DNA of 64,000 nt from Haladaptatus caseinilyticus (GCF_026248685.1 NZ_CP111038.1:62001-126000); one strand, 5' to 3'. Counted from the stretch's first letter, positions 22,517 through 33,363 are shown. The notes: generated by a model not told the origin, from the sequence alone. Translations and numbers: made by a program.

Positions 22517-22957
22517 ATGTCATTCGATTCAAATGACTTTCGACTGAGCGCAGATCGAAGCGGCTACGACCTATTTATCTCCCACTCATGGGAATATGAT
22601 GAAGACTACGAAGGGCTCATCGAGTTGCTCAAGGACAAAAATCACTTCTCTTTTCGAAACTACTCGGTAACGGAAGAGGAACGAGTTGAGGGGAAGTCCG
22701 ATGCAGCACTCGAACGCCATATTAAGAACAAACAGATCAAGCCCGCATCGGTCGTGATTGTGATCGCAGGGATGTACTCTTCATACAGTGATTGGATTGG
22801 TAAAGAAGTACGAATCGCAGAGGATCTTGATAAGCCAATTCTAAGCGTTAGACCGTGGGGTGCTGAGCGAACATCCTATATCGCAGATAAGGCCGACGCA
22901 AAGGTAAACTGGAACAAAGATAGTATCGTTAGCGAGATTCGAAACCTTGCACCATAA
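22517..22957 (+). CDS. TIR-like (DUF1863/MTH538, ThsB-type) sensor protein
   Basis: 146 residues forming one TIR-like domain: first strand DLFISHSWEYD (residues 18-28), a VVIVIAGMYSSYSDWIGKEV segment (79-98) with the conserved S...S-x-W and Glu97 at the catalytic position, and DKPILSVRPWG (105-115). This is the MTH538-like TIR class used by Thoeris ThsB to make an NAD-derived signal on infection. It ends 3 bases before a membrane-protein gene, so the two form an operon. No ThsA (SIR2/SLOG or macro) gene is present, which suggests the membrane protein is the effector. Role as a sensor is inferred from family and pairing. Confidence 0.78.
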   Translation: MSFDSNDFRLSADRSGYDLFISHSWEYDEDYEGLIELLKDKNHFSFRNYSVTEEERVEGKSDAALERHIKNKQIKPASVVIVIAGMYSSYSDWIGKEVRIAEDLDKPILSVRPWGAERTSYIADKADAKVNWNKDSIVSEIRNLAP

Positions 22958-22960
22958 CGA

Positions 22961-23593
22961 ATGGCGGAATCGAGTGAGCAACAGCAAGATCGTAGTCATG
23001 ATACAGAAGTAGAGGCAGCCAACGAAAACAGAGACCCGAACACTGTACTCGAACTCTGGAAGCAGTATGAGCAAACAGCGCGTGACGTGAGTAATCGAAG
23101 GCTCAAGAACAACCGTTTCTACCAGCGTCTTCTCGGAGCGACCGTTGCGGGGGTTGGTGTCGCTGCGAAGTTCAATGCAATCGGACCGTTTGTATACGTT
23201 GTTGTTGGCCTGATCGGTGTTGCAATCTCTCTTCTATGGATGATGCACATTGTTTCGTATAAACAGCTGAACAGCGGGAAGTACGATGTTTTGCATGACC
23301 TGGAATCTGAGCTACCGTATCAACCGTTTAGCCAGGAGTGGAAGAAGCTCGACCGTGGTCGAGACCCAACGACGTTCATTACACACACGAGCGTTGAAAT
23401 CTGGTGGCCGAGAGTCGCACTCTGGGTATTCGGAGGAATGGTACTCTACGGTGGAATCCAGAAGCTGCAAACTGGAGGATCTGCTTCTTGGTTGCTTGGA
23501 GTATGGACGGGATTGATGCTGATTTACTGGTGGGCAGCGTTTCGTGGGAGAAAACCGTTCAAGGCAATTGGGAAATGCTGGAAGCAGCGTTAA
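22961..23593 (+). CDS. RipA-like four-helix membrane protein, putative TIR effector
   Basis: 210 residues. A polar N-terminus is followed by LELWKQYEQTARDVSNRRLK and NNRFYQRLLGA, the signature I associate with the RipA-family octameric membrane proteins, then two transmembrane helices (about residues 60-80 and 85-105), a soluble segment, and two more helices (about 150-170 and 175-195). It is the second gene of the TIR operon, 3 bases downstream. A pore-forming or membrane-disrupting effector triggered by a TIR-made nucleotide signal is a reasonable inference. Confidence 0.65.
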   Translation: MAESSEQQQDRSHDTEVEAANENRDPNTVLELWKQYEQTARDVSNRRLKNNRFYQRLLGATVAGVGVAAKFNAIGPFVYVVVGLIGVAISLLWMMHIVSYKQLNSGKYDVLHDLESELPYQPFSQEWKKLDRGRDPTTFITHTSVEIWWPRVALWVFGGMVLYGGIQKLQTGGSASWLLGVWTGLMLIYWWAAFRGRKPFKAIGKCWKQR

Positions 23594-23682: not shown

Positions 23683-24738
23683 TCAGCCTTCGAGCACGAG
23701 CTCTTCTACGAAGTTGATCCACTGGTCATGATCCAGTTCATCTCCAGGAACACATCTGATTTGGAGTCGAGTTCGGTTCCCATGAATTTCTGTGTCTAAT
23801 CCGACTCGCTCACTATCCCCAATCAGATTGGCAGCCGCCTCAAGCAGGTTCTGTTCGTCTTCGAATAGAAAGTCGTAGATATCGATCTGCACCGATTGGG
23901 CCCAAGTTCGTAAGAGCACTCGATTTGTCCCGTCCATTCGGAAGGCAATGTAGAGTTTTTGTGTCCAACTTGGACCGTCTAAGCCTCTTACTTCGCTCAT
24001 TATTTCGACCAGCTGTTGTACAAGTACAGCCGTATCCTCATTTGTCCGCTCTTCAAGATGCCAGCGCTTGCCATCTACTTTCCATGGCGTGTCCGAGGGT
24101 GTGTCTCCTGTTTCGAACTTCGCTAAATCAGAGGTCGGCACGAGAGTTTTCGAGTCGAGATACAGGCTATTCGTCCCATCCTTGAACAGCGAAAACTGAA
24201 CAATATTAGCATCGATTCCCTGTTCTCGCAACCATAATACGACACTGCCGATCCGTTCGTGAACCCGATTCCCAACAAGAAAAATACGTTGAGTCGCGTT
24301 GAGCTCGTAATCATCGTCACAGAATTCTTCGAGCGTTTCAGCAAAGGTTGCACCTTCGCCATGGAGATCCATACCCCACTCGGACTGGAGAAACATCTCA
24401 AACTGTTGTTTGATATCGTCGTACGACCAGCGAGAAACGTATGAGACGTACTTTAGAGCCTGAAAGTCGACCGACCCGCGTAGAGCGCCGCGTTTGAGCT
24501 CAATGACGACAAGATTCCCTGCACGGTCGATCGCAAGAATATCGATTCCATCATTGAGATCTGCGACGCCAACTTCACGACCGATCACAAGGAAATCTTC
24601 ACCCAGTATTTCGGCTGTATTGTCGATTACCCATTCACGAAGGTCGTCCTCACTGAGCTGCTCCGTGCTTAATTCGGTCGCAGTGAGTTCGGTTGCTTCT
24701 CTCCCCTCTATTCTGAGCATATTGGATGAATACACCAA
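23683..24738 (-). CDS. NucS-like PD-(D/E)xK nuclease domain protein
   Basis: 351 residues (start at 24738 or at the second Met, 24720). The N-terminal part has LREWVIDNTAEILGEDFLVI, then GIDILAIDRAGNLVVIELKRG, i.e. the D...E-x-K catalytic core of the NucS/DUF91 endonuclease fold, followed by ALKYVSYVS. The C-terminal 200 residues contain alternating strands of unknown function. NucS cleaves mismatched or branched DNA; members in defence islands may restrict foreign DNA. It converges with the TIR operon and is divergent from the PLD-SNF2 gene, so it may belong with the latter. Confidence 0.75.
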   Translation of the reverse strand: MVYSSNMLRIEGREATELTATELSTEQLSEDDLREWVIDNTAEILGEDFLVIGREVGVADLNDGIDILAIDRAGNLVVIELKRGALRGSVDFQALKYVSYVSRWSYDDIKQQFEMFLQSEWGMDLHGEGATFAETLEEFCDDDYELNATQRIFLVGNRVHERIGSVVLWLREQGIDANIVQFSLFKDGTNSLYLDSKTLVPTSDLAKFETGDTPSDTPWKVDGKRWHLEERTNEDTAVLVQQLVEIMSEVRGLDGPSWTQKLYIAFRMDGTNRVLLRTWAQSVQIDIYDFLFEDEQNLLEAAANLIGDSERVGLDTEIHGNRTRLQIRCVPGDELDHDQWINFVEELVLEG

Positions 24739-24902: not shown

Positions 24903-27900
24903 ATGCCCTATCTTGATCCTCTCATTGATAATACAGAGCGAACTCTGGAGGAAACATATAGAGACGTCATCTCCGAAAGCGAAGAGGTACGTATCGCAAC
25001 CGGCTATTTCTATCTCTCCGGCTTCGATCTGTTCAGAGACGACCTCAAGAAGCTCCTTGAGCCAGAGGAACTCGGTCACGCACCTCTGCGGATTATCATG
25101 GGGAGGCAGACAAATACACGAACAGTTGAAGAGATCGAAGAGGGTCAAAGTCTTCAGGAGCGTTTTCGAGAGGAATTCAAATCGGATATTGAGGCGCTCA
25201 ATAACGCACAGATGGGACGACTCGATCGACTTCGATACTTCATCGAACGAGGGCTTGTCGATGTCCGGGTTCGAAACCCCGAGAAGGGATATTTTCATGC
25301 AAAGGGTGCATCTTTCAGGGAAGCGACAGACGACCCATCGATGCGAGAGGGAGATATAGATCGACGTGACCCGGCTGTTATCGTCGGATCATCCAATTTC
25401 ACCCAGAGCGGTCATCAGAACAACATCGAACTGAACCTCACGAGTGCAGATCCGCAGAAGGTCGAAGCGTTCGAGGACTGGTTCGATAACCAGTGGGCAA
25501 ACTCCGAGGAGTTCTCTCGGGAGATCATCCGAATCATTGAGAACAGTAGCAAGTACCAGAATTGGAAGGAATCCGAAAAAGAAGACGACACCAAAGAGGA
25601 TGAACGAGAACTCGGGACGTATATCGAACCGTTCGAGCTCTACAAGCTGATGGCCTACGACGCGCTCGGTGGGAGCGTCAGCAGCCGAGATAGCCCACTC
25701 TACTACTTCCAGACAATCGGATACGAAAGTGCCAGAGAGAAGCTTGCCAGGTACAACGGGTGTATCATCTCTGACTCAGTCGGTCTCGGGAAGTCCTTTA
25801 TCGGCAGTGAGCTGCTGCACGATTACCGCCAAGACGGGAAACGCTGTCTACTCATCGTCCCTGCAAACCTGGTCGAGCAGTGGACCGAATTGCTTCAAGC
25901 CGCGACTGACGAGAATGGTGACCCGTTCTTCGGGCTTCGAGTGGATAAGACACACCTCGATGTAATGAGTATCAGCAAGTTCCAGGACTATTCGTACGAA
26001 GAGGTGCAGGAACTCCGCGAGCAGTTCGACGTCTTGCTCATCGACGAGGCACACCGGTTCCGTAACTTCGGAAAGTGGCGTCCGAAACCCTCCGATGACG
26101 ATGATTACAAGGGGACGAGACGGCACGCCAACCTCCGTCTCCTTCGAGACAAGACGATGATTCTCTTGACGGCGACGCCACTGAACAACAGTGCGACCGA
26201 TCTGAAGAACCTCATCGGGCTGTTCACAGACAAAAACGAAATTCGAAACAAGGCAAACCTCGATTTCACCGCGTTCGACCGGTACATCGACATCGCAGAA
26301 CAACGGAAGCGAGTTGCCGCCGGGAAGGAACAGATGTCTCAAGATGAAGTAGAGGGACTGACTGAGCAACTTCAGAATGAATCCGGAGAGATATCGAAGA
26401 TTCTGAACGAGGTGATGGTCCTTCGAACTCGGAAGCACGTCAAAGAGACGCTCCTGAAGAAGGACGACGACTTGGAGATGAGTTTCAAACCTCCAAAAAT
26501 TCAGAAGGAAGAATACACGCTTCCTCCAGCATATCGCCCGGTCTACGATTCACTCCCGGAAGTGATGGACGCGCTTCACCTGCCACACATCACCATCAAA
26601 AATCCGCAGGCGGGCAGTACGCTGAAGGCACTCTACAAACTGAACCTGCTCAAACGCCTCGAATCGTCGACGTTCGCGTTCGTCCAAAGTATCGAGACGC
26701 TATACGAGAGTGAACAGGGCCTCCTTGCAGTTCTCAACTCCCTGCCCGATGAGGAGAGCATTGACACCCTTCGGACCATTCAGGATGGCGGCGGGGCAGT
26801 CACACTCGATGACTACGTACAAGACGGCGAAGCCGCAGAAGATCTAGCACAAACGCTCGAAGAGTTCGGGTTCGATGCAGATTCACTCCGATCTGGCGAT
26901 GGAGACTCCAGCGACGAACTTGCGGACTTGACTGTCGCAGAGGTGAAGGCGCGTGTCTACGAGGACCTTGCACTCCTTTCGTACTTCCTTCAGCTGTTCA
27001 TCGCTGACGTTGCGAAGGATGCAGACAACCTCAACGACCACTCTGTTCACGTTCGCCAGTGGCTCGGGAAAAACCACGTCGGATTCATTCCCGATGTCCC
27101 TGAGGACGAAGTCGATCCGTTGCTCTTCCCGAGTCAGAACCTCGCTGAGGTAACTACGGAGACGAAAGACTTCTACGATGCAATCTTCCGGCTCCGTGAC
27201 TTCCGTGACCCGAAGATAGACCGACTGAATGGTGTCCTCGCAGGATATGACAACAAAGTTCTCGTGTTTACGCAGTACCGCGCGACTGCTGACTACGTCT
27301 TCCGGACGCTTCTCGAAGACCCTGACTCACCGCTCACAGAGCAGAACAGCACCGTCATCAAAGGCGGAGACGACGACAAACAAGAGAAGATTCGCCGTTT
27401 TGCTCCTGACGCATACGGCTATCGTGAAACACTCGAACGGACTGGCGATGGAGAATTGCAGTATGTCGTCGCCACCGACACGCTCAGTGAGGGTGTGAAC
27501 CTGCAGGACGTTCACACTGTCATCAACTACGACCTTCCGTGGAACCCAATGCGTATCGTCCAGCGTGTCGGTCGCATCGACCGCATCGGGAGTACCGCTG
27601 ACAAGCACGTCCACAACTTCTACCCCGACGGCGACATCGAGGCGGCTATCAAGCTCCTCAAACGCCTCCAAGCGAAGATCAACGACATCGCCCTCATTGT
27701 CGGGAAAGAGAACAACATCCTCGACCCGAACGAAGACGAGATTCTGGAAAAGGCTGGCGTCAAGACGCAGAAGACGATTGGCGAACTCGAACTCGATGAG
27801 ATCAAAGACACACTCCAACGCTCTCGTGAGGTTGACGACTACAACGATCTCGATGATACGTCGAAGAATCCCCTCCTGCGGAGTGCAGGCAGTGATGAGG

Positions 27901-28694
27901 ACGAAGCGTTCGAGCGCCTGATGCTCAAACAGGAGTTGAACGACGACTACGGACTTGGAGAAGAAGACTTCGAGTACGCAGAGGAGTACTTCGAAACCGC
28001 TCCGAAAGACCGCGACCTGTTGTACACAAATGTCGTCGATTCCGAGAGTGGGCACGCACCGGGGGTCTTCGGCCTCGCACACCTCTGGTTCGATGACGAG
28101 TCTGATGCACCACTTGGCCGAACCCGGCGGGCGCTCTACTCGAAGCGCACTGGGAAAGATGTGGACGAGGTGAGCGCGATTCGGTCGCTCAAGATTAACC
28201 CCGACACAAAGGGTCGAAAGATGACTAGTCACGACAAGCGATACCTCGAAGAACGCAATGCTATCGAAGGGGTTGTCGAGAGACGTATCGAGGAAGCAAA
28301 GCAGGGACTCATCGGAACGAAATTCGAGGAAGGAGACGACTATTCAGTCGAGCAGGAGAAAATCATCTCCTACCTGCGGCACCTCAAGCGAAATTCGTCT
28401 GGTGAATTAGCAAAACCAGTTGATGGGCACACCGAGATTTCGGAGGTTGCAACAATCGTCTTGGAGCGCGTCAAGGAGGTCAAACTGAAGAATACTGACG
28501 AGGATCGAATCCTTCGTGAGACGTTCCGTCAAGAGGACAAGGGACTTGGAGAGTGGGACCTTGACGAGTTCTTCGAGACGTTGGTAGATTTCCTCGATGA
28601 GAATATTGAAGATTCGACCGAGTACCAGTCGAAATTGGCAGGGACAGGTGATGTAGATGCCCGTGTTCTCTGTTGGGGCGTGTTGAATCGGTAG
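24903..28694 (+). CDS. PLD-nuclease/SNF2-helicase fusion, putative defence protein
   Basis: 1263 residues. N-terminal phospholipase D-type nuclease: VRIATGYFYLSGFDLF, then FHAKGASF (about residue 130) and VIVGSSNFTQSG (about 159-170), an HxK plus Ser/Asn set. Helicase domain 1: Walker A DSVGLGKS (about 290), DEAH box LLIDEAHRF (about 380), motif III TATPLNN (about 422). Helicase domain 2: VLVFTQYRATADYVF (about 783), SEGVNLQ (about 865), and QRVGRIDRIG (about 887). It resembles the large RapA/SNF2-like helicases of restriction-like systems (DISARM DrmD, type ISP). It converges with a large adenine methylase, so both probably act in one system: the methylase marks self, this protein translocates on and cuts unmodified DNA. 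Confidence 0.8.
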   Translation: MPYLDPLIDNTERTLEETYRDVISESEEVRIATGYFYLSGFDLFRDDLKKLLEPEELGHAPLRIIMGRQTNTRTVEEIEEGQSLQERFREEFKSDIEALNNAQMGRLDRLRYFIERGLVDVRVRNPEKGYFHAKGASFREATDDPSMREGDIDRRDPAVIVGSSNFTQSGHQNNIELNLTSADPQKVEAFEDWFDNQWANSEEFSREIIRIIENSSKYQNWKESEKEDDTKEDERELGTYIEPFELYKLMAYDALGGSVSSRDSPLYYFQTIGYESAREKLARYNGCIISDSVGLGKSFIGSELLHDYRQDGKRCLLIVPANLVEQWTELLQAATDENGDPFFGLRVDKTHLDVMSISKFQDYSYEEVQELREQFDVLLIDEAHRFRNFGKWRPKPSDDDDYKGTRRHANLRLLRDKTMILLTATPLNNSATDLKNLIGLFTDKNEIRNKANLDFTAFDRYIDIAEQRKRVAAGKEQMSQDEVEGLTEQLQNESGEISKILNEVMVLRTRKHVKETLLKKDDDLEMSFKPPKIQKEEYTLPPAYRPVYDSLPEVMDALHLPHITIKNPQAGSTLKALYKLNLLKRLESSTFAFVQSIETLYESEQGLLAVLNSLPDEESIDTLRTIQDGGGAVTLDDYVQDGEAAEDLAQTLEEFGFDADSLRSGDGDSSDELADLTVAEVKARVYEDLALLSYFLQLFIADVAKDADNLNDHSVHVRQWLGKNHVGFIPDVPEDEVDPLLFPSQNLAEVTTETKDFYDAIFRLRDFRDPKIDRLNGVLAGYDNKVLVFTQYRATADYVFRTLLEDPDSPLTEQNSTVIKGGDDDKQEKIRRFAPDAYGYRETLERTGDGELQYVVATDTLSEGVNLQDVHTVINYDLPWNPMRIVQRVGRIDRIGSTADKHVHNFYPDGDIEAAIKLLKRLQAKINDIALIVGKENNILDPNEDEILEKAGVKTQKTIGELELDEIKDTLQRSREVDDYNDLDDTSKNPLLRSAGSDEDEAFERLMLKQELNDDYGLGEEDFEYAEEYFETAPKDRDLLYTNVVDSESGHAPGVFGLAHLWFDDESDAPLGRTRRALYSKRTGKDVDEVSAIRSLKINPDTKGRKMTSHDKRYLEERNAIEGVVERRIEEAKQGLIGTKFEEGDDYSVEQEKIISYLRHLKRNSSGELAKPVDGHTEISEVATIVLERVKEVKLKNTDEDRILRETFRQEDKGLGEWDLDEFFETLVDFLDENIEDSTEYQSKLAGTGDVDARVLCWGVLNR

Positions 28695-28742
28695 TCGATT
28701 CGGAGGTTAACTAGTTTTCAGGAAAAAGAGTCCTTAGCCAAC

Positions 28743-31700
28743 TTACGGATGCGGGCCGGTTTCAGCGAGTTCATCGAACTTCTCGAAGACGAGGTCAAAA
28801 TATTCTTCAGTCATTCGGCGGGGGTTGCTCACTCGATGGAAGTCTTCAAGGACGAACTCAGTGTCTCGTCGATTCAGTCCGTAGGCATGGAACGCCGCCG
28901 CGTCGATTTCGGCTTGCAGTCGCATTCGTTCGTCTTCGTCGGTTGCCGGTTCGATACCTCCGAGACGTTCGCGCATCTCGGCAAAGGCGTCTCCATAGCA
29001 GTTGAGGCGGGCAGCACGTTCAGAGATGTAGTGGAACCAGTCGTCGCCGTCGGTGAGACGGGGCATTTGGGATTCCTCGAATTTGTACTTGACAATATGT
29101 GCGTCAACTTTCGTTCGCAACAGGAAATCAAACGGAATGCTGTTGAGTAGACCCAATGCGACAAACAGTTCGTTATCAGAGAAGACACGACTGTAGGCAC
29201 TGTGCATCGGATAAGTTCCGAGATCGTCCTTATCTGGATCTACCTTGAACGGTCGAACAGTATGGAGTGTATGGACTGCAACAGACTCTTTGGGAACCAC
29301 CCCTGCGATGAGTGTTCTCTCGTCGGTTGCACGCGCAATTTCACGGAGAACGATTCGGTACTCAGTAGAGTCCAAGAGAACGTCTTCGGGAGAGAGTTCT
29401 TGTCGGTCGAACTCTTCAGTGAGCAGGTCGTTGACGAATCCCTTCTGTGACCGAGTATTCAAATGACTAAATTCAGCATCGTTAGAGAACTTGTTGTAGA
29501 TGGCTTTTTTGAGGCTGATGTCGTCGTCACGGGAACGGAAGTTCTTCCCGCGAATGCGAGCCTTTGCACTCTTTTCTTCGGAGACGTCCTCGTCAACACT
29601 CCAAAGAGAAATGTCTTCTAGGCCTCGCACAAACTCGCTATCGTAAGCGAACTGGAAGACATTCTTTCCTTGGTAGACTGGGAAATCTCCGTCTTCTTTA
29701 TTCTCTACGAAGCGGTCAGAATCCCCTGCACGGTGCAATTCAGCATACAGCGAAGCGTACCATGTGCTATCTATGTCTTCAGATACGGGGGGGTGTTCTA
29801 GAATTTTTGAAAGTACGTCTACCTCGGCTTTTGTTTCGATGTTAGGGAAGATCCGTGCTTGAGGAGAGTAGTTCTTAAGCACTTTTGATGGAATCTCAAA
29901 CGATTTCTGATTGATGTTCTGGAGAACGTTCACCGAGGTCTGGTGGAAGACTCCGTGAACAGAGTCAGTCGAGCCACTATTCTGTAGGGTTACAATACCG
30001 AAATTGTATCGGCTATCTATCGCTGGGAAAATGCCGCGGTTTTCAAAGCCAATCACATTCTGGACTGTCGACTCTTCCAGAGCGTGAAGTCTGAGGTCTT
30101 TCCCTGCTGCTCCGTTGAAAATCACCCCGGGAAGGATTTGTGCAACGTATCCATCCTCAGAGATAATATCGAAGACCCGTTCAAAGAAGAGCATCGAGAG
30201 GTCGTTTTCGTTGCCGACAGCCCGCCCATCAACCTCCGGGTTTTGGAGCTTGTACTGACCACCGTCGTTGAAATATTTCGCTCGACGTGCCATCTCTTTT
30301 TGATGTTTGTCCCACCCCTCAGCAATGGATGAGTCTTCAAGCAACTCCTCCATCTTCGAATCCTTGTCCTCTGGCATCCGAGTTCGGAAGGTTTCATCGA
30401 ATTTGGAGAAGTAATCGTCACGATTGGAAGTAAGCACGTCCCATGGGGGGTTTCCGATAATCACATCGAACCCCCCGTCTCGGTATACCGTTGCAAATTC
30501 CAAAACCCAGTGGAATGGACTGTATGCCTTTAATTCTTCAGCAGAAACATCGTTAATCCCCGTATCGCTGAACTGCTTCAGAACTTTCTCATTGAGCGTT
30601 TGACTGTGCGTATCGATTCGAGACTCGGCTAGGTTTCGTGCATTTGCTGCATCTGATCCAGTAGTTGCACTACGATGTCGCTCAACGGCATCAATGATGT
30701 CCTCATACAGATCCTTCACACTGACACCAATGCCTTCTCCAAAGTTCGATAACGCGGCGTCGCCCTGTTCCTCACGAGCGACTTCCATGATTTCTGTAAA
30801 CCCAATTAGAGAGTTCCCCTGCCGAATGTTGAAGTCAATATTCGGGAGCGGCTCGACTTCCTTCGGATTGTTTTCAATGTCAGCGACCATCGATAACCAC
30901 AGGCGGAGCTTACAGATCTCAACTGCGCCGTCGTCGATGTCGACGCCATAGAGGTTGTGGAGGATAATCTGCTTCTTCGCGTACAGGGTCACGGTCCCAT
31001 CCGTCGCGTCGATAGTGTCTAACTCATTTTCTATTCGACCGGGGAGTTCCCACGGACGGTCGTCACGAAGGGCTTGGAAATACTCCAAGCACTGGAGATA
31101 CACGTCGAGAAGAACCTCCTGTGCGGCCAAGAGAAATGCCCCACTGCCGACTGCGGGGTCGAGAACGCGGAGTTTCTTCAGCGCATCGAAGTAGAGGGTC
31201 TGGACGTGGTCTTGATTCACGGCCTCGAGGTTCACCGTTTGGGCAACGCCGCCGTCCGCCACAACGGGCGTATCACTCTGACTGGCCGAAGCCACATCGA
31301 GTGAGAAAATGTCGTCGATCGCGTCGTAGTCAGTCCCGTGTTCTTCGTTCACCCGGTCAAGGAGCCACGGATGGACGGTTCGTCGGGACATAAAGCCGGT
31401 AATCTCTTCAGGCGTGTAGTACGCGCCCATCTCCTTCTGGTTGACTGTCTGCTCGAAGATGTGCCCCAAGATGGCGGGCGAGAGGTTCTTCGGGTCCACG
31501 ATGTCGAGCCGTTCGTCCACGTTCCAGTTCCAGTCTGAGAGGAAGTCGAGAATCTTTCCGAAGAGTTCTGCCGTCTGTTCGGGGGAGTCTCCGAGCCTGG
31601 CGTCTTCGAACTCCTCTTCGATGGGGTTCTTGCTGAACAGGCCGCCGTTGAGGTAGGGGAGGACGCCGAAGTCGTCGTCCTTCTTCCCTTCTGCGAGGAT

Positions 31701-32060
31701 CTCGAAGAACAGCGGTTCGTAGAACTCCTCGTACACGTCTCCCTTCGCGTCGAACTCTTCGTGCTTCTCGTGGAGGTAGTCAGACTCGTAGTCGAGCAGA
31801 CCCTTCTTTTGGATAAAGTAGAGAAAGATCATCCGGTCGAGCGTAACCTGCACGTAGCGCTGTTTAGCGTCGCCACGGTCATCATCGATACCAGCGACCT
31901 CTTGGACGAGTTCGGTTCGGAGTTTCTCGAAATCCTCGTAGAAATCGTTGACAACCTGCTTTGTATCGTAGAGAGAATCAAAAATTGTCTCAGGTTTGTT
32001 GAACTCGATGGCGTTGAGTTTCTGGAGGATGGTGTTTTTGTCCCCGTGAGTGCTCGTCAT
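28743..32060 (-). CDS. Large N6-adenine DNA methyltransferase, Eco57I/PglX-like
   Basis: 1105 residues from ATG 32060 (a longer frame to 32216 adds non-conserved residues). Methylase motifs: EMGAYYTPEEITGFM, then motif I LDPAVGSGAFLLAAQ (SAM binding, about 31130-31165) and motif IV GNPPWD (about 30445-30465). The C-terminal 400 residues would hold target recognition. The N-terminus shows no clear D...ExK nuclease motif, so it is probably a modification enzyme rather than a self-contained type IIG enzyme. Its 3' end meets the PLD-SNF2 gene 48 bases away. Its architecture resembles PglX of BREX, but pglZ and brxC are absent. Confidence 0.82.
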   Translation of the reverse strand: MTSTHGDKNTILQKLNAIEFNKPETIFDSLYDTKQVVNDFYEDFEKLRTELVQEVAGIDDDRGDAKQRYVQVTLDRMIFLYFIQKKGLLDYESDYLHEKHEEFDAKGDVYEEFYEPLFFEILAEGKKDDDFGVLPYLNGGLFSKNPIEEEFEDARLGDSPEQTAELFGKILDFLSDWNWNVDERLDIVDPKNLSPAILGHIFEQTVNQKEMGAYYTPEEITGFMSRRTVHPWLLDRVNEEHGTDYDAIDDIFSLDVASASQSDTPVVADGGVAQTVNLEAVNQDHVQTLYFDALKKLRVLDPAVGSGAFLLAAQEVLLDVYLQCLEYFQALRDDRPWELPGRIENELDTIDATDGTVTLYAKKQIILHNLYGVDIDDGAVEICKLRLWLSMVADIENNPKEVEPLPNIDFNIRQGNSLIGFTEIMEVAREEQGDAALSNFGEGIGVSVKDLYEDIIDAVERHRSATTGSDAANARNLAESRIDTHSQTLNEKVLKQFSDTGINDVSAEELKAYSPFHWVLEFATVYRDGGFDVIIGNPPWDVLTSNRDDYFSKFDETFRTRMPEDKDSKMEELLEDSSIAEGWDKHQKEMARRAKYFNDGGQYKLQNPEVDGRAVGNENDLSMLFFERVFDIISEDGYVAQILPGVIFNGAAGKDLRLHALEESTVQNVIGFENRGIFPAIDSRYNFGIVTLQNSGSTDSVHGVFHQTSVNVLQNINQKSFEIPSKVLKNYSPQARIFPNIETKAEVDVLSKILEHPPVSEDIDSTWYASLYAELHRAGDSDRFVENKEDGDFPVYQGKNVFQFAYDSEFVRGLEDISLWSVDEDVSEEKSAKARIRGKNFRSRDDDISLKKAIYNKFSNDAEFSHLNTRSQKGFVNDLLTEEFDRQELSPEDVLLDSTEYRIVLREIARATDERTLIAGVVPKESVAVHTLHTVRPFKVDPDKDDLGTYPMHSAYSRVFSDNELFVALGLLNSIPFDFLLRTKVDAHIVKYKFEESQMPRLTDGDDWFHYISERAARLNCYGDAFAEMRERLGGIEPATDEDERMRLQAEIDAAAFHAYGLNRRDTEFVLEDFHRVSNPRRMTEEYFDLVFEKFDELAETGPHP

Positions 32061-32148
32061 CTGTTCTTTCGAGAACGAAAGTTGCTGGTACTTCGTCCGT
32101 CCGTGAGCGTCCCACTTAGAATATGGATTTCTTTCATTTGTCGTCGGA

Positions 32149-32379
32149 TTGGATGTAGTATTCCTGACTATACTGCCCAAAATAGGAATCATACTGCTGG
32201 TAGCATCAGTTCTCACATTTATACTACGGTATTATCCTGTCTATAGAGAATTGCGTCTGTATCGAGCAATGGCAACTAGTAATACTCAAGATGAAAATGA
32301 TCGCACTATAAGAATTTTTGACATATTTGTGCTATTTGTCGTGATTTCTTATATGGTTTATAGATATAAAATAAATTAG
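32149..32379 (+). CDS. Possible small two-helix membrane protein
   Basis: 76 residues from a TTG, AT-rich, with two hydrophobic stretches (ILPKIGIILLVASVLTFIL and IFDIFVLFVVISYMVY). Its 5' end overlaps the discarded N-terminal extension of the methylase on the other strand. It has no ATG before the second half, so it is uncertain; AT-rich sequence can give membrane-like frames by chance. Confidence 0.3.
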   Translation: MDVVFLTILPKIGIILLVASVLTFILRYYPVYRELRLYRAMATSNTQDENDRTIRIFDIFVLFVVISYMVYRYKIN

Positions 32380-32406
32380 AATTCTGGATAGTTCCAAAAT
32401 AATAAT

Positions 32407-32613
32407 TTATTCTTTGCAAGTAACTTCTTGAATCTCATCGAAAACCTCTGGAAGCCACTCACGTAGAACGATAATGTCATCCTCGAATTTCTTCCGAACG
32501 CGATTCCTTACAAGTGATTCCACTTTGTAGCGGTAGTTATCAGATACGTCTACCTCTCCGGTAATAATGTCTCGCTCTCGTTGAGTCATTAGTGCGCGGC
32601 CTTCGTTAGTCAT
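32407..32613 (-). CDS. Small conserved haloarchaeal plasmid/virus protein
   Basis: 68 residues from ATG 32613, highly charged (TNEGRALMTQRERDIITGEV, then YRYKVESLVRNRVRKKFEDD). The pattern of an N-terminal RERD segment and basic R-N-R-V-R-K region is common in short haloarchaeal virus and plasmid proteins; it may bind DNA. A 30-base palindrome lies about 55 bases upstream. Function not known. Confidence 0.6.
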   Translation of the reverse strand: MTNEGRALMTQRERDIITGEVDVSDNYRYKVESLVRNRVRKKFEDDIIVLREWLPEVFDEIQEVTCKE

Positions 32614-32666
32614 TCTTATTTCCAATTTCTCTCTCCCATGTTAAGTCTCTCTTGGTATTTCGTATA

Positions 32667-32696
32667 TACTAAATTTGGTGTATACCATATTTAGTA
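32667..32696. promoter_or_regulatory. 30-base imperfect palindrome between divergent genes
   Basis: Outer arms TACTAAAT (32667-32674) and ATTTAGTA (32689-32696) are perfect; the inner TTGGTGTATACCA half is nearly symmetric, giving 26 of 30 matching positions. It lies between the divergent small gene at 32407 and the five-gene plasmid operon at 32872. Possible operator or centromere-like site. Confidence 0.6.
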
Positions 32697-32871
32697 AATA
32701 CTAAGTGGACGGCTAGTAGACATACTACCAAGAAGCGCGGGACGCCTTCCCAGAAAGGCCGGTGGTAGGACACCGACCGCGCTTCGGACCACACCGAAGC
32801 ATGACTAGCAATACCCTTTCCGTAGAAAAACGCATCGACTACCAACCACTTTGTATCGGAGGACACGACTA
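32697..32871. other. Leader region of the plasmid operon
   Basis: 175 bases with GC-rich self-complementary stretches (gaagcgcgggacgcc...ccgcgcttc, about 32731-32787) and an AGGAGG-like element (32857-32862) that fixes the start of the next gene. Structured leader is likely; no small gene is evident. Confidence 0.4.
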
Positions 32872-33363
32872 ATGGCGTCCTTCGACGAGAAACCCAACGG
32901 CGGACTCCTCTCCCTTGAGGCCCAATTCGGCGAGAAAGTCTTCCACCCCATCAAGCGCCTCGAACCCACACCCGAAACTGCCGCCCAGGACCCCGACCAA
33001 CCCACACCCACTACCGACGAGCCAATCACCCGCGCATACCTCGTCGAACTTCGCGTGGGCTTTCAAACCCGAACCAAGACCACCAACCAAGACCCCTACC
33101 TGTACTGCATCTACGCCACGCCGGACTGCCAGCAATTTTTCGAACGTCGCTGCCCGATCGACTACGGCGAGGCGGGCTTCCAGATTCCCGAGGACACCGA
33201 CACCTACCGGTCGGTCGCCACCACCAAAACGGGCAATCCGAAGCTCCCCTCCACACCACCGGGTGAAACCCACGCCAATACCCGCGCACACTACCAGCGT
33301 ATCCTCGCACGGTGCTACGACATCGACGCCACCACCCACACTACAACTGAGGTACCCGTGTAG
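32872..33363 (+). CDS. Haloarchaeal plasmid protein of unknown function, first of five
   Basis: 163 residues from ATG 32872, preceded by ggagg (32858-32862). Beta-rich middle (AYLVELRVGFQTRTKTTNQD, then YLYCIYATPDCQQFFERRCP) with a CxnC pair. Pro/Thr-rich linker segments are typical for halophiles. I recognise no enzyme motif. It opens the GC-richer operon that runs with short overlaps to 35389, a set that looks like the conserved backbone of a haloarchaeal plasmid. Confidence 0.6.
   Translation: MASFDEKPNGGLLSLEAQFGEKVFHPIKRLEPTPETAAQDPDQPTPTTDEPITRAYLVELRVGFQTRTKTTNQDPYLYCIYATPDCQQFFERRCPIDYGEAGFQIPEDTDTYRSVATTKTGNPKLPSTPPGETHANTRAHYQRILARCYDIDATTHTTTEVPV

What the first reader, a model, noticed from the sequence alone, without database searches (positions are those of the whole stretch)
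24903..32060. Convergent PLD-SNF2 helicase and large adenine methylase, a possible split restriction system
The 1263-residue PLD-nuclease/SNF2 fusion and the 1105-residue Eco57I-like methylase meet tail to tail with 48 bases between. Neither BREX (pglZ, brxC) nor the remaining DISARM genes (drmA, drmB) are present. The combination resembles type ISP enzymes cut in two, with an added PLD nuclease. The adjacent NucS-like nuclease (23683-24738), divergent from the helicase, could be a third component.
Basis: partly seen in the sequence, partly recalled or inferred. Interest (0 to 1): 0.62.

Follow-up and report, generated by a model that had tools for sequence, protein, structure and literature searches.

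The report
Two-gene archaeal restriction system, switchable relatives
The window holds a two-gene DNA-restriction-like defence (a nuclease-helicase plus a methylase) that is conserved across salt-loving archaea and, as an operon, in bacteria; in at least ten related archaea a dedicated recombinase appears to flip part of the methylase gene to change which DNA site it recognises, although the copy in this window lacks the flip cassette and has lost the start of its methylase gene.

Summary
In detail: a 1263-aa PLD-SNF2 protein and an Eco57I-type adenine methylase meet tail to tail with 48 bp between. The pair is a real system. In 292 haloarchaeal genomes, 35 of 36 close PLD-SNF2 genes have the methylase beside them; distant bacterial relatives form a tight two-gene operon. 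DUF499 is absent, PglZ has no match above cut-off, and no DISARM or ARMADA partner is nearby.

Two corrections. The window's methylase lacks a ~96-aa N-terminus present in every full-length close homologue, so this copy may be impaired. The NucS-like neighbour belongs to a subclade not linked to the system elsewhere.

The main result lies in relatives. In 12 loci of 10 haloarchaea, a second methylase half without a start lies inverted beyond the first, with perfect or near-perfect 38-80 bp inverted repeats at the junction and a dedicated tyrosine recombinase. Both states are seen: two Halorubrum loci align as one 19.5-kb piece (98.9%) only after inverting 1.6 kb in silico. Silent halves are under purifying selection. 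Helicase identity tracks the methylase N-half (rho 0.96), not the specificity half (rho -0.02). Likely mechanism: an archaeal restriction system switching specificity by DNA inversion; the window copy is a fixed, truncated member. No wet-lab evidence exists.

The parts
24903..28694 (+). PLD (HKD) nuclease fused to SNF2 helicase, 1263 aa; predicted restriction/translocation subunit
24966..25496 (+). PLD-like nuclease domain (PF13091); single HxK motif at 25287-25307, N/E motif at 25386-25433
25704..26516 (+). SNF2/ResIII ATPase domain; Walker A 25782-25796, DEAH 26043-26054
27216..27590 (+). Helicase C-terminal domain; motif VI 27561-27584
28743..32060 (-). Eco57I-type N6-adenine methylase, 1105 aa from the ATG at 32060 (open frame extends to GTG 32216 through unrelated sequence); 5'-truncated relative to 1186-1226-aa homologues
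30816..32060 (-). Methylase N-half remnant (res. 1-415), 86-98% identical to the sister locus L069; contains motif I (31134-31163) and the sites homologous to crossover edge A (31074-31094) and edge B (30918-30947)
28746..30815 (-). Methylase C-half (motif IV NPPW at 30438-30455, target recognition region); only 34-54% identical to L069 over most of its length, i.e. exchanged relative to the N-half
32116..32130 (.). Approximate truncation breakpoint: similarity to homologous methylase genes ends here (about 32122)
23683..24738 (-). NucS-like / PDC-S11 nuclease, divergent from the helicase; neighbour, probably not a component

Best explanation
This is a two-component, restriction-modification-like defence system. 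The methylase carries its own target recognition region, reads an asymmetric DNA site and marks adenine N6 on self DNA. It recruits, through its N-terminal half, the PLD-SNF2 protein, which translocates on unmarked DNA by its SNF2 motor and cuts it with its PLD (HKD) nuclease. In a haloarchaeal subclade the specificity is switchable: a segment of about 1.5-1.7 kb, carrying the promoter and the first ~435 or ~485 codons of the methylase, lies between 38-80 bp inverted repeats and is flipped by a dedicated tyrosine recombinase. The one start and N-half is thereby joined to either of two C-halves with different recognition regions, while the helicase partner stays the same. Shown by sequence: co-occurrence, module structure, repeats, both orientations, coupling of helicase and N-half, selection on silent halves. 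Inferred: enzymatic activities, cleavage, that the recombinase drives the flip, and the change of methylation motif. The window copy is a single-copy member without cassette or recombinase, whose C-half has been exchanged relative to its nearest relative and whose methylase has lost its first ~96 codons; it may be defective or in decay.
For: Pairing: 35/36 close helicase loci have the methylase adjacent, 33 of them convergent; it also holds for named genomes and as a tight co-directional operon in distant bacteria and archaea. Inversion: repeats identical right up to the junction, ~50% identity beyond over the next 66 bp and chance level upstream; L072 and L073 become one 19.5-kb alignment at 98.9% only after in-silico inversion; opposite states in Halobaculum saliterrae's two copies and in closed plasmids. 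The recombinase (PF00589, 2.2e-10) sits behind the distal half in the complete invertible loci, and the ten best recombinase hits in 292 genomes all lie at such loci or their split contigs. Arms are identical within most loci but only 94.6% identical between loci. Draft contigs end exactly at the repeat edge in Halosimplex carlsbadense, Halosimplex salinum and Halomarina oriensis. Silent halves: dN/dS 0.04-0.13 where dS is at least 0.1. Helicase vs N-half rho 0.96, vs recognition region -0.02, 27 loci. Window truncation.
Against: No experiment shows methylation, cleavage, defence or flipping. Opposite states are seen between species or paralogues, not within one clone; contig breaks at repeats could be an assembly effect of a 54-bp repeat. 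The AlphaFold model of the methylase is weak (pLDDT 66). PbeA, a PLD-helicase partner of Dnd, halts replication without cleaving DNA (PMC6459918), so PLD cleavage is not assured. The window copy itself has no switch and a truncated methylase.
Confidence: 0.8

Rival explanations
1. The window pair is a decayed restriction remnant: the methylase lost its 5' end and the locus is no longer active, only the helicase-nuclease remaining intact.
For: All full-length homologues have the missing N-terminus; it is nowhere else in the genome; upstream sequence is unrelated.
Against: No stop or frameshift in 1105 codons of the methylase nor in 1263 of the helicase; an in-frame ATG and upstream GTG exist; both catalytic motifs are intact. 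The function of the first 96 residues is unknown.
Confidence: 0.45
2. It works like BREX, Pbe or BREX-related systems: the methylase marks self and the PLD-SNF2 protein blocks replication of unmarked DNA without cutting it.
For: Helicase resembles DrmD, BrxH, HmaA and PbeA; methylase fold resembles BrxX; PbeA of Dnd-Pbe has the same domain order and acts without cleavage (PMC6459918).
Against: No PglZ above cut-off, DUF499 absent, no PbeB-D-like partner seen; HKD residues are invariant, suggesting catalysis is needed.
Confidence: 0.2
3. The inverted methylase halves arise from ordinary duplication and homologous recombination or gene conversion, not from programmed site-specific inversion.
For: The two halves share ~75% DNA identity over about 300 bp beyond the perfect repeat, a possible substrate for homologous recombination.
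Against: A dedicated recombinase at the complete invertible loci; identity drops sharply exactly at the repeat edge; two distinct site types (edges A and B) each with its own recombinase clade; flips are precise to the base.
Confidence: 0.1
4. The NucS-like nuclease at 23683-24738 is an obligate third component of the system.
For: Adjacent in the window; a related subclade is directly downstream of the methylase in about seven loci.
Against: Absent from most loci; the window's own subclade sits on other contigs in genomes that also have the helicase (G026, G090) and in many that do not; TBP-like, HSDR_N, CD-NTase and TIR genes occupy the same slots elsewhere.
Confidence: 0.08

Closest known systems
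DUF499-centred BREX-related Type-2 systems (HKD-SNF2 helicase + N6-MTase + DUF499 + DUF3780; PMC12839542; also PMC7641849)
   Same: N-terminal HKD nuclease fused to SNF2 helicase, paired with an N6-adenine methylase; predicted RM-like
   Different: No DUF499 ATPase in this genome and no third gene in the core; methylase matches Eco57I/type IIG models, whereas the earlier report describes a COG1743 methylase
Type ISP (LlaGI/LlaBIII) restriction enzymes
   Same: Nuclease + translocase + gamma-class methylase with built-in target recognition; works-like comparison
   Different: Two polypeptides; PLD instead of Mrr-like nuclease; SNF2/RapA-like motor; no sequence hit to ISP chains in the PDB searches
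Type IIG (Eco57I/MmeI-like) enzymes
   Same: Methylase scores best against PADLOC type IIG models; stand-alone 1290-aa haloarchaeal relatives
   Different: Relatives carry an extra PD-(D/E)XK-looking N-terminal region (no Pfam nuclease match); this family lacks it and has the PLD-SNF2 partner
DISARM class 1 (DrmD/DrmMI) and ARMADA (ArmA/ArmB)
   Same: SNF2 helicase next to a PglX-like methylase
   Different: No DrmA/DrmB or YprA-like helicase near the pair (one search finds one MZB helicase far off on the chromosome)
Inverting Type I hsdS systems (SpnD39III and others; PMC7394358) and invertible pglX of BREX (from memory)
   Same: Recombinase plus inverted repeats switch methylase specificity
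   Different: Here the start-bearing N-half of a one-piece methylase is flipped between two C-halves, in archaea, with a PLD-SNF2 restriction partner
PbeA of Dnd-PbeABCD (PMC6459918)
   Same: PLD + ResIII + Helicase_C domain order in haloarchaea
   Different: Pbe depends on phosphorothioation and PbeBCD; here the partner is an adenine methylase

Membership tests
Type ISP restriction enzyme | Nuclease, helicase, methylase and target recognition in one polypeptide | tested here: not met
   Two genes, convergent, 48 bp apart
Type ISP restriction enzyme | Mrr-like PD-(D/E)XK nuclease domain | tested here: not met
   PLD (PF13091) instead
BREX | pglZ present | tested here: not met
   No PglZ match above cut-off in the whole genome; two sub-threshold hits of about 21 bits
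DISARM class 1 / ARMADA | DrmA/DrmB (DUF1998) or YprA-like helicase with the pair | tested here: not met
   Single MZB/DUF1998 protein at C1:2424906, far from C3; no such family recurs beside the pair in relatives
Type-2 BREX-related (DUF499) system | HKD nuclease N-terminal to SNF2 helicase | tested here: met
Type-2 BREX-related (DUF499) system | DUF499 ATPase | tested here: not met
   No PF04465 in the genome
Type-2 BREX-related (DUF499) system | DUF3780 protein | not tested
   No profile search for DUF3780 was run
Two-gene PLD-SNF2 / Eco57I-methylase pair (this report) | Helicase and methylase adjacent in independent genomes | tested here: met
   35/36 close loci; 15 of 19 distant loci from the named-genome scan plus three distant haloarchaeal loci
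Two-gene PLD-SNF2 / Eco57I-methylase pair (this report) | Full-length methylase including the ~96-aa N-terminus | tested here: not met
   Missing in the window copy
Specificity-inverting RM system | Second methylase half, inverted repeats and recombinase at the locus | tested here: not met
   Not in the window nor a related recombinase in its genome at E 1e-8; met in 12 relative loci
Specificity-inverting RM system | Change of methylation motif on flipping | not testable with these tools
   Needs methylomes
Type IIG enzyme | Nuclease domain in the methylase polypeptide | tested here: inconclusive
   No nuclease family in P0002/P0010; the model of the N-terminus is low confidence

The most novel reading that the evidence does not exclude
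Haloarchaea carry a plasmid-borne, specificity-switching restriction system: a PLD-SNF2 nuclease-motor that co-evolves with a fixed methylase N-half, while a dedicated tyrosine recombinase inverts that N-half and its promoter between two divergent specificity halves, so that sibling cells differ in methylome and in which viruses they restrict. The window holds a fixed, truncated member of the same family.
Probability: 0.75. Interest if true: 0.73.

Novelty: new variant of a known kind. Interest (0 to 1): 0.62.

Why it matters
Specificity switching by DNA inversion is well known for bacterial Type I systems. The archaeal RM, immune-system and tyrosine-recombinase papers that I searched for these terms (PMC10609329, PMC6471742, PMC12988326, PMC8371274) gave no passage describing it for archaeal methylases. 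A precise invertible cassette with its own recombinase, found in both states on closed haloarchaeal plasmids, makes archaeal epigenetic phase variation directly testable in culturable strains (Halorubrum, Halobaculum, Halorussus). It also defines a minimal PLD-SNF2 plus methylase restriction pair spanning bacteria and archaea, now annotated only as 'helicase-related protein' and 'DNA methyltransferase / BREX-1 PglX', and suggests that the helicase docks to the methylase's N-half.

Tried and rejected
Looked for direct and inverted repeats in the window around the pair: none, so the window is not itself invertible in this assembly. Looked for the missing methylase N-terminus elsewhere in the genome: absent. 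Considered the upstream block 32110-32870 as a mobile element end: only its distal ~140 bp recurs on three other contigs, so no clear culprit. BREX, DUF499 and DISARM partners: rejected. NucS-like gene as third component: rejected for the window's subclade. Tested whether the recombinase family also flips stand-alone type IIG-like methylases: it lies next to three of them (L189, L191, L192) but no long exact inverted repeat was found there. AlphaFold of a full-length methylase (L141): overall confidence too low to judge the N-terminal domain; the fold search supports a gamma-class N6-MTase with a recognition domain (CamA, BrxX, M.TaqI). Goldfarb 2015 (BREX, invertible pglX) and Makarova 2011 are not held in the library, so those comparisons rest on memory.

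Full report
WHAT IS THERE. Catalytic signatures are intact in both. PADLOC's best matches are 'HKD+Snf2' C3a139 (1.2e-75) for the helicase and type IIG methylase models (7e-72) for the methylase, with DrmD, BrxH, HmaA, PbeA and DrmMI, PglX families behind them. The genome has no PglZ match above cut-off, no DUF499, and only one MZB/DUF1998 helicase, on another contig.

IS THE PAIR REAL. In 292 haloarchaeal genomes (class-level sample), 36 close copies of the helicase occur in 33 genomes. The methylase lies next to 35 of them, convergent in 33 and co-directional in two. The exception (L095) lies on a 7.5-kb contig. A scan of one genome per species in the named GTDB collection gives the same picture. 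Distant homologues (24-36% identity; Leptospiraceae, Sulfurimonas, sphingomonads, cyanobacteria, Gracilibacteria and others) carry the methylase on the same strand, usually 0-60 bp downstream or overlapping, in 15 of 19 loci; most of the exceptions lie on short or truncated contigs. Three distant haloarchaeal copies (L104-L106) have the methylase directly upstream. So the pair is an old two-gene unit, and the convergent layout is haloarchaeal.

THE WINDOW'S COPY IS TRUNCATED. Full-length close homologues are 1186-1226 aa and share a conserved ~96-residue N-terminus. In the window, similarity stops at about 32122, upstream sequence is unrelated, and the missing part is not elsewhere in the genome. 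The frame is otherwise open. Whether an internal start still yields a working enzyme cannot be decided here. Against its nearest relative (L069, helicase 90% identical), the methylase is 94-98% identical over most of the N-half and then falls to 34-54% over most of the C-half. The specificity half has been exchanged at about residue 415.

THE SWITCH IN RELATIVES. In seven loci of the class sample, and twelve loci of ten genomes when the named collection is added (two genomes carry two copies each; one locus, L128, ends at a contig end within the second half), a second methylase piece without start and N-half lies inverted beyond the first. Its homology begins abruptly. In eight loci with edge A (codon 436), the two arms are identical over 54 bp in six and 96-98% identical in two; identity is about 50% over the following 66 bp and at chance level (0.17-0.32) upstream. 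In three loci with edge B (codon ~486), the perfect repeat is 38-80 bp. Between loci the same arm differs (mean 94.6% identity), so the two arms of a locus evolve together. The segment between them, about 1.5-1.7 kb, holds the intergenic region and the N-half. A 222-225-aa tyrosine recombinase (PF00589) follows the distal half in all such loci of the class sample and is absent from the other loci examined there. In a search of 292 genomes, its ten best matches (73-100% identity) all lie at these loci or their split contigs.

BOTH STATES EXIST. After in-silico inversion of the segment they align as one 19.5-kb block at 98.9% with one gap. The expressed half of one is the silent half of the other. 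Halobaculum saliterrae carries two copies in opposite states. Closed plasmids show both states. Draft contigs of Halosimplex carlsbadense, Halosimplex salinum and Halomarina oriensis end at the repeat edge, and a contig of the window's own genus (G123) ends within the repeat at both ends, as mixed populations would cause, though an assembler can also break at a 54-bp repeat. Silent halves keep open frames in most loci and show dN/dS of 0.04-0.13 at dS of at least 0.1, as low as expressed halves; a never-expressed half should drift towards 1. One locus (L075) has a broken silent half.

WHO TALKS TO WHOM. Over 27 loci, pairwise helicase identity correlates with identity of the methylase N-half (residues 100-430) at rho 0.96, and with the recognition region (700-1050) at -0.02. 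Pairs are not independent, so rho is descriptive, but the contrast is stark: the N-half belongs to the helicase, the C-half is exchangeable. This is the basis for inferring that the N-half recruits the motor-nuclease.

MECHANISM. By family knowledge (SNF2 motors translocate on duplex DNA; HKD enzymes of the BfiI/SauUSI kind cut DNA; gamma-class N6-methylases with a built-in recognition domain need no HsdS), I infer an RM-like cycle: methylase marks self and, on unmarked sites, loads the PLD-SNF2 protein. Each of these steps is inferred. A Pbe/BREX-like replication block without cleavage remains possible (PMC6459918).

THE OTHER NEIGHBOURS. The window's NucS-like gene (PDC-S11) belongs to a subclade present in about a dozen of the 292 genomes, on other contigs even where the helicase exists. 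A different subclade sits directly downstream of the methylase in about seven loci. TBP-like, HSDR_N, CD-NTase and TIR/8xMP genes also occupy the helicase-methylase gap or flank. These are best seen as interchangeable defence-island cargo.

COMPARISON. The pair works like a split type ISP or Type I enzyme, but fails the ISP membership tests (separate polypeptides, PLD not Mrr-like). It resembles Type-2 BREX-related systems (PMC12839542) in the HKD-SNF2 architecture but lacks their DUF499 core. It resembles DISARM/ARMADA helicase-methylase pairs without their YprA-type helicase (PMC12458937). The switch resembles inverting hsdS systems (PMC7394358), with a different flipped unit. The archaeal surveys that could be searched (PMC10609329, PMC6471742, PMC12988326) gave no hit for inversion of methylase genes, and the passages shown from PMC8371274 do not describe it. 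Goldfarb et al. 2015 could not be read, and I recall inverted pglX copies being described there, so the principle of invertible methylases next to recombinases is not claimed as new.

VERDICT. Observation confirmed; interpretation partly supported; window copy a truncated, fixed member. The family-level finding is a new variant of known kinds, of good interest and directly testable.

Noticed in passing
window 22517-23593: ThsB-type TIR protein (22517-22957) followed 4 bp later by an 8xMP membrane protein (22961-23593): a possible Thoeris-like pair with a membrane effector. TIR plus 8xMP also stand just upstream of the helicase in L074 and L075.
   Followed up: partly
L071, L077, L084, L094 (between helicase and methylase); L076, L103, L105, L150 nearby: A ~181-aa TATA-binding-protein homologue (PF00352) recurs with the system; an extra TBP inside a defence locus is unexpected and could regulate it.
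   Followed up: partly
L080, L081, L087 (also L122, L137): A ~390-aa protein with an HSDR_N (Type I R subunit) nuclease domain lies directly upstream of the helicase on the same strand.
   Followed up: partly
L070:12497-14433: Two consecutive nucleotidyltransferase-like genes (they look like CD-NTases) sit between helicase and methylase.
   Followed up: no
L189, L191, L192: Relatives of the inversion recombinase (63-64% identity) lie next to stand-alone type IIG-like methylases; in L189 and L192 a divergent ~1400-aa PglX-like methylase stands beside them. No long exact inverted repeat was found, so their role is unclear.
   Followed up: partly
window 32730-32870: About 140 bp upstream of the gene cluster starting near 32872 recur at 85-90% identity on three other contigs of the genome (C4, C6, C7), hinting at a multicopy element next to the truncated methylase end.
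   Followed up: partly
L101, L102: Two loci have a co-directional methylase upstream of the helicase and a second full-length, 46%-identical methylase downstream: two methylases around one helicase without inversion.
   Followed up: no
L148: A Nanohalarchaeota metagenome-assembled genome carries the pair (helicase 54% identical) on a 1-Mb contig, suggesting transfer between host and symbiont lineages or a binning error.
   Followed up: no
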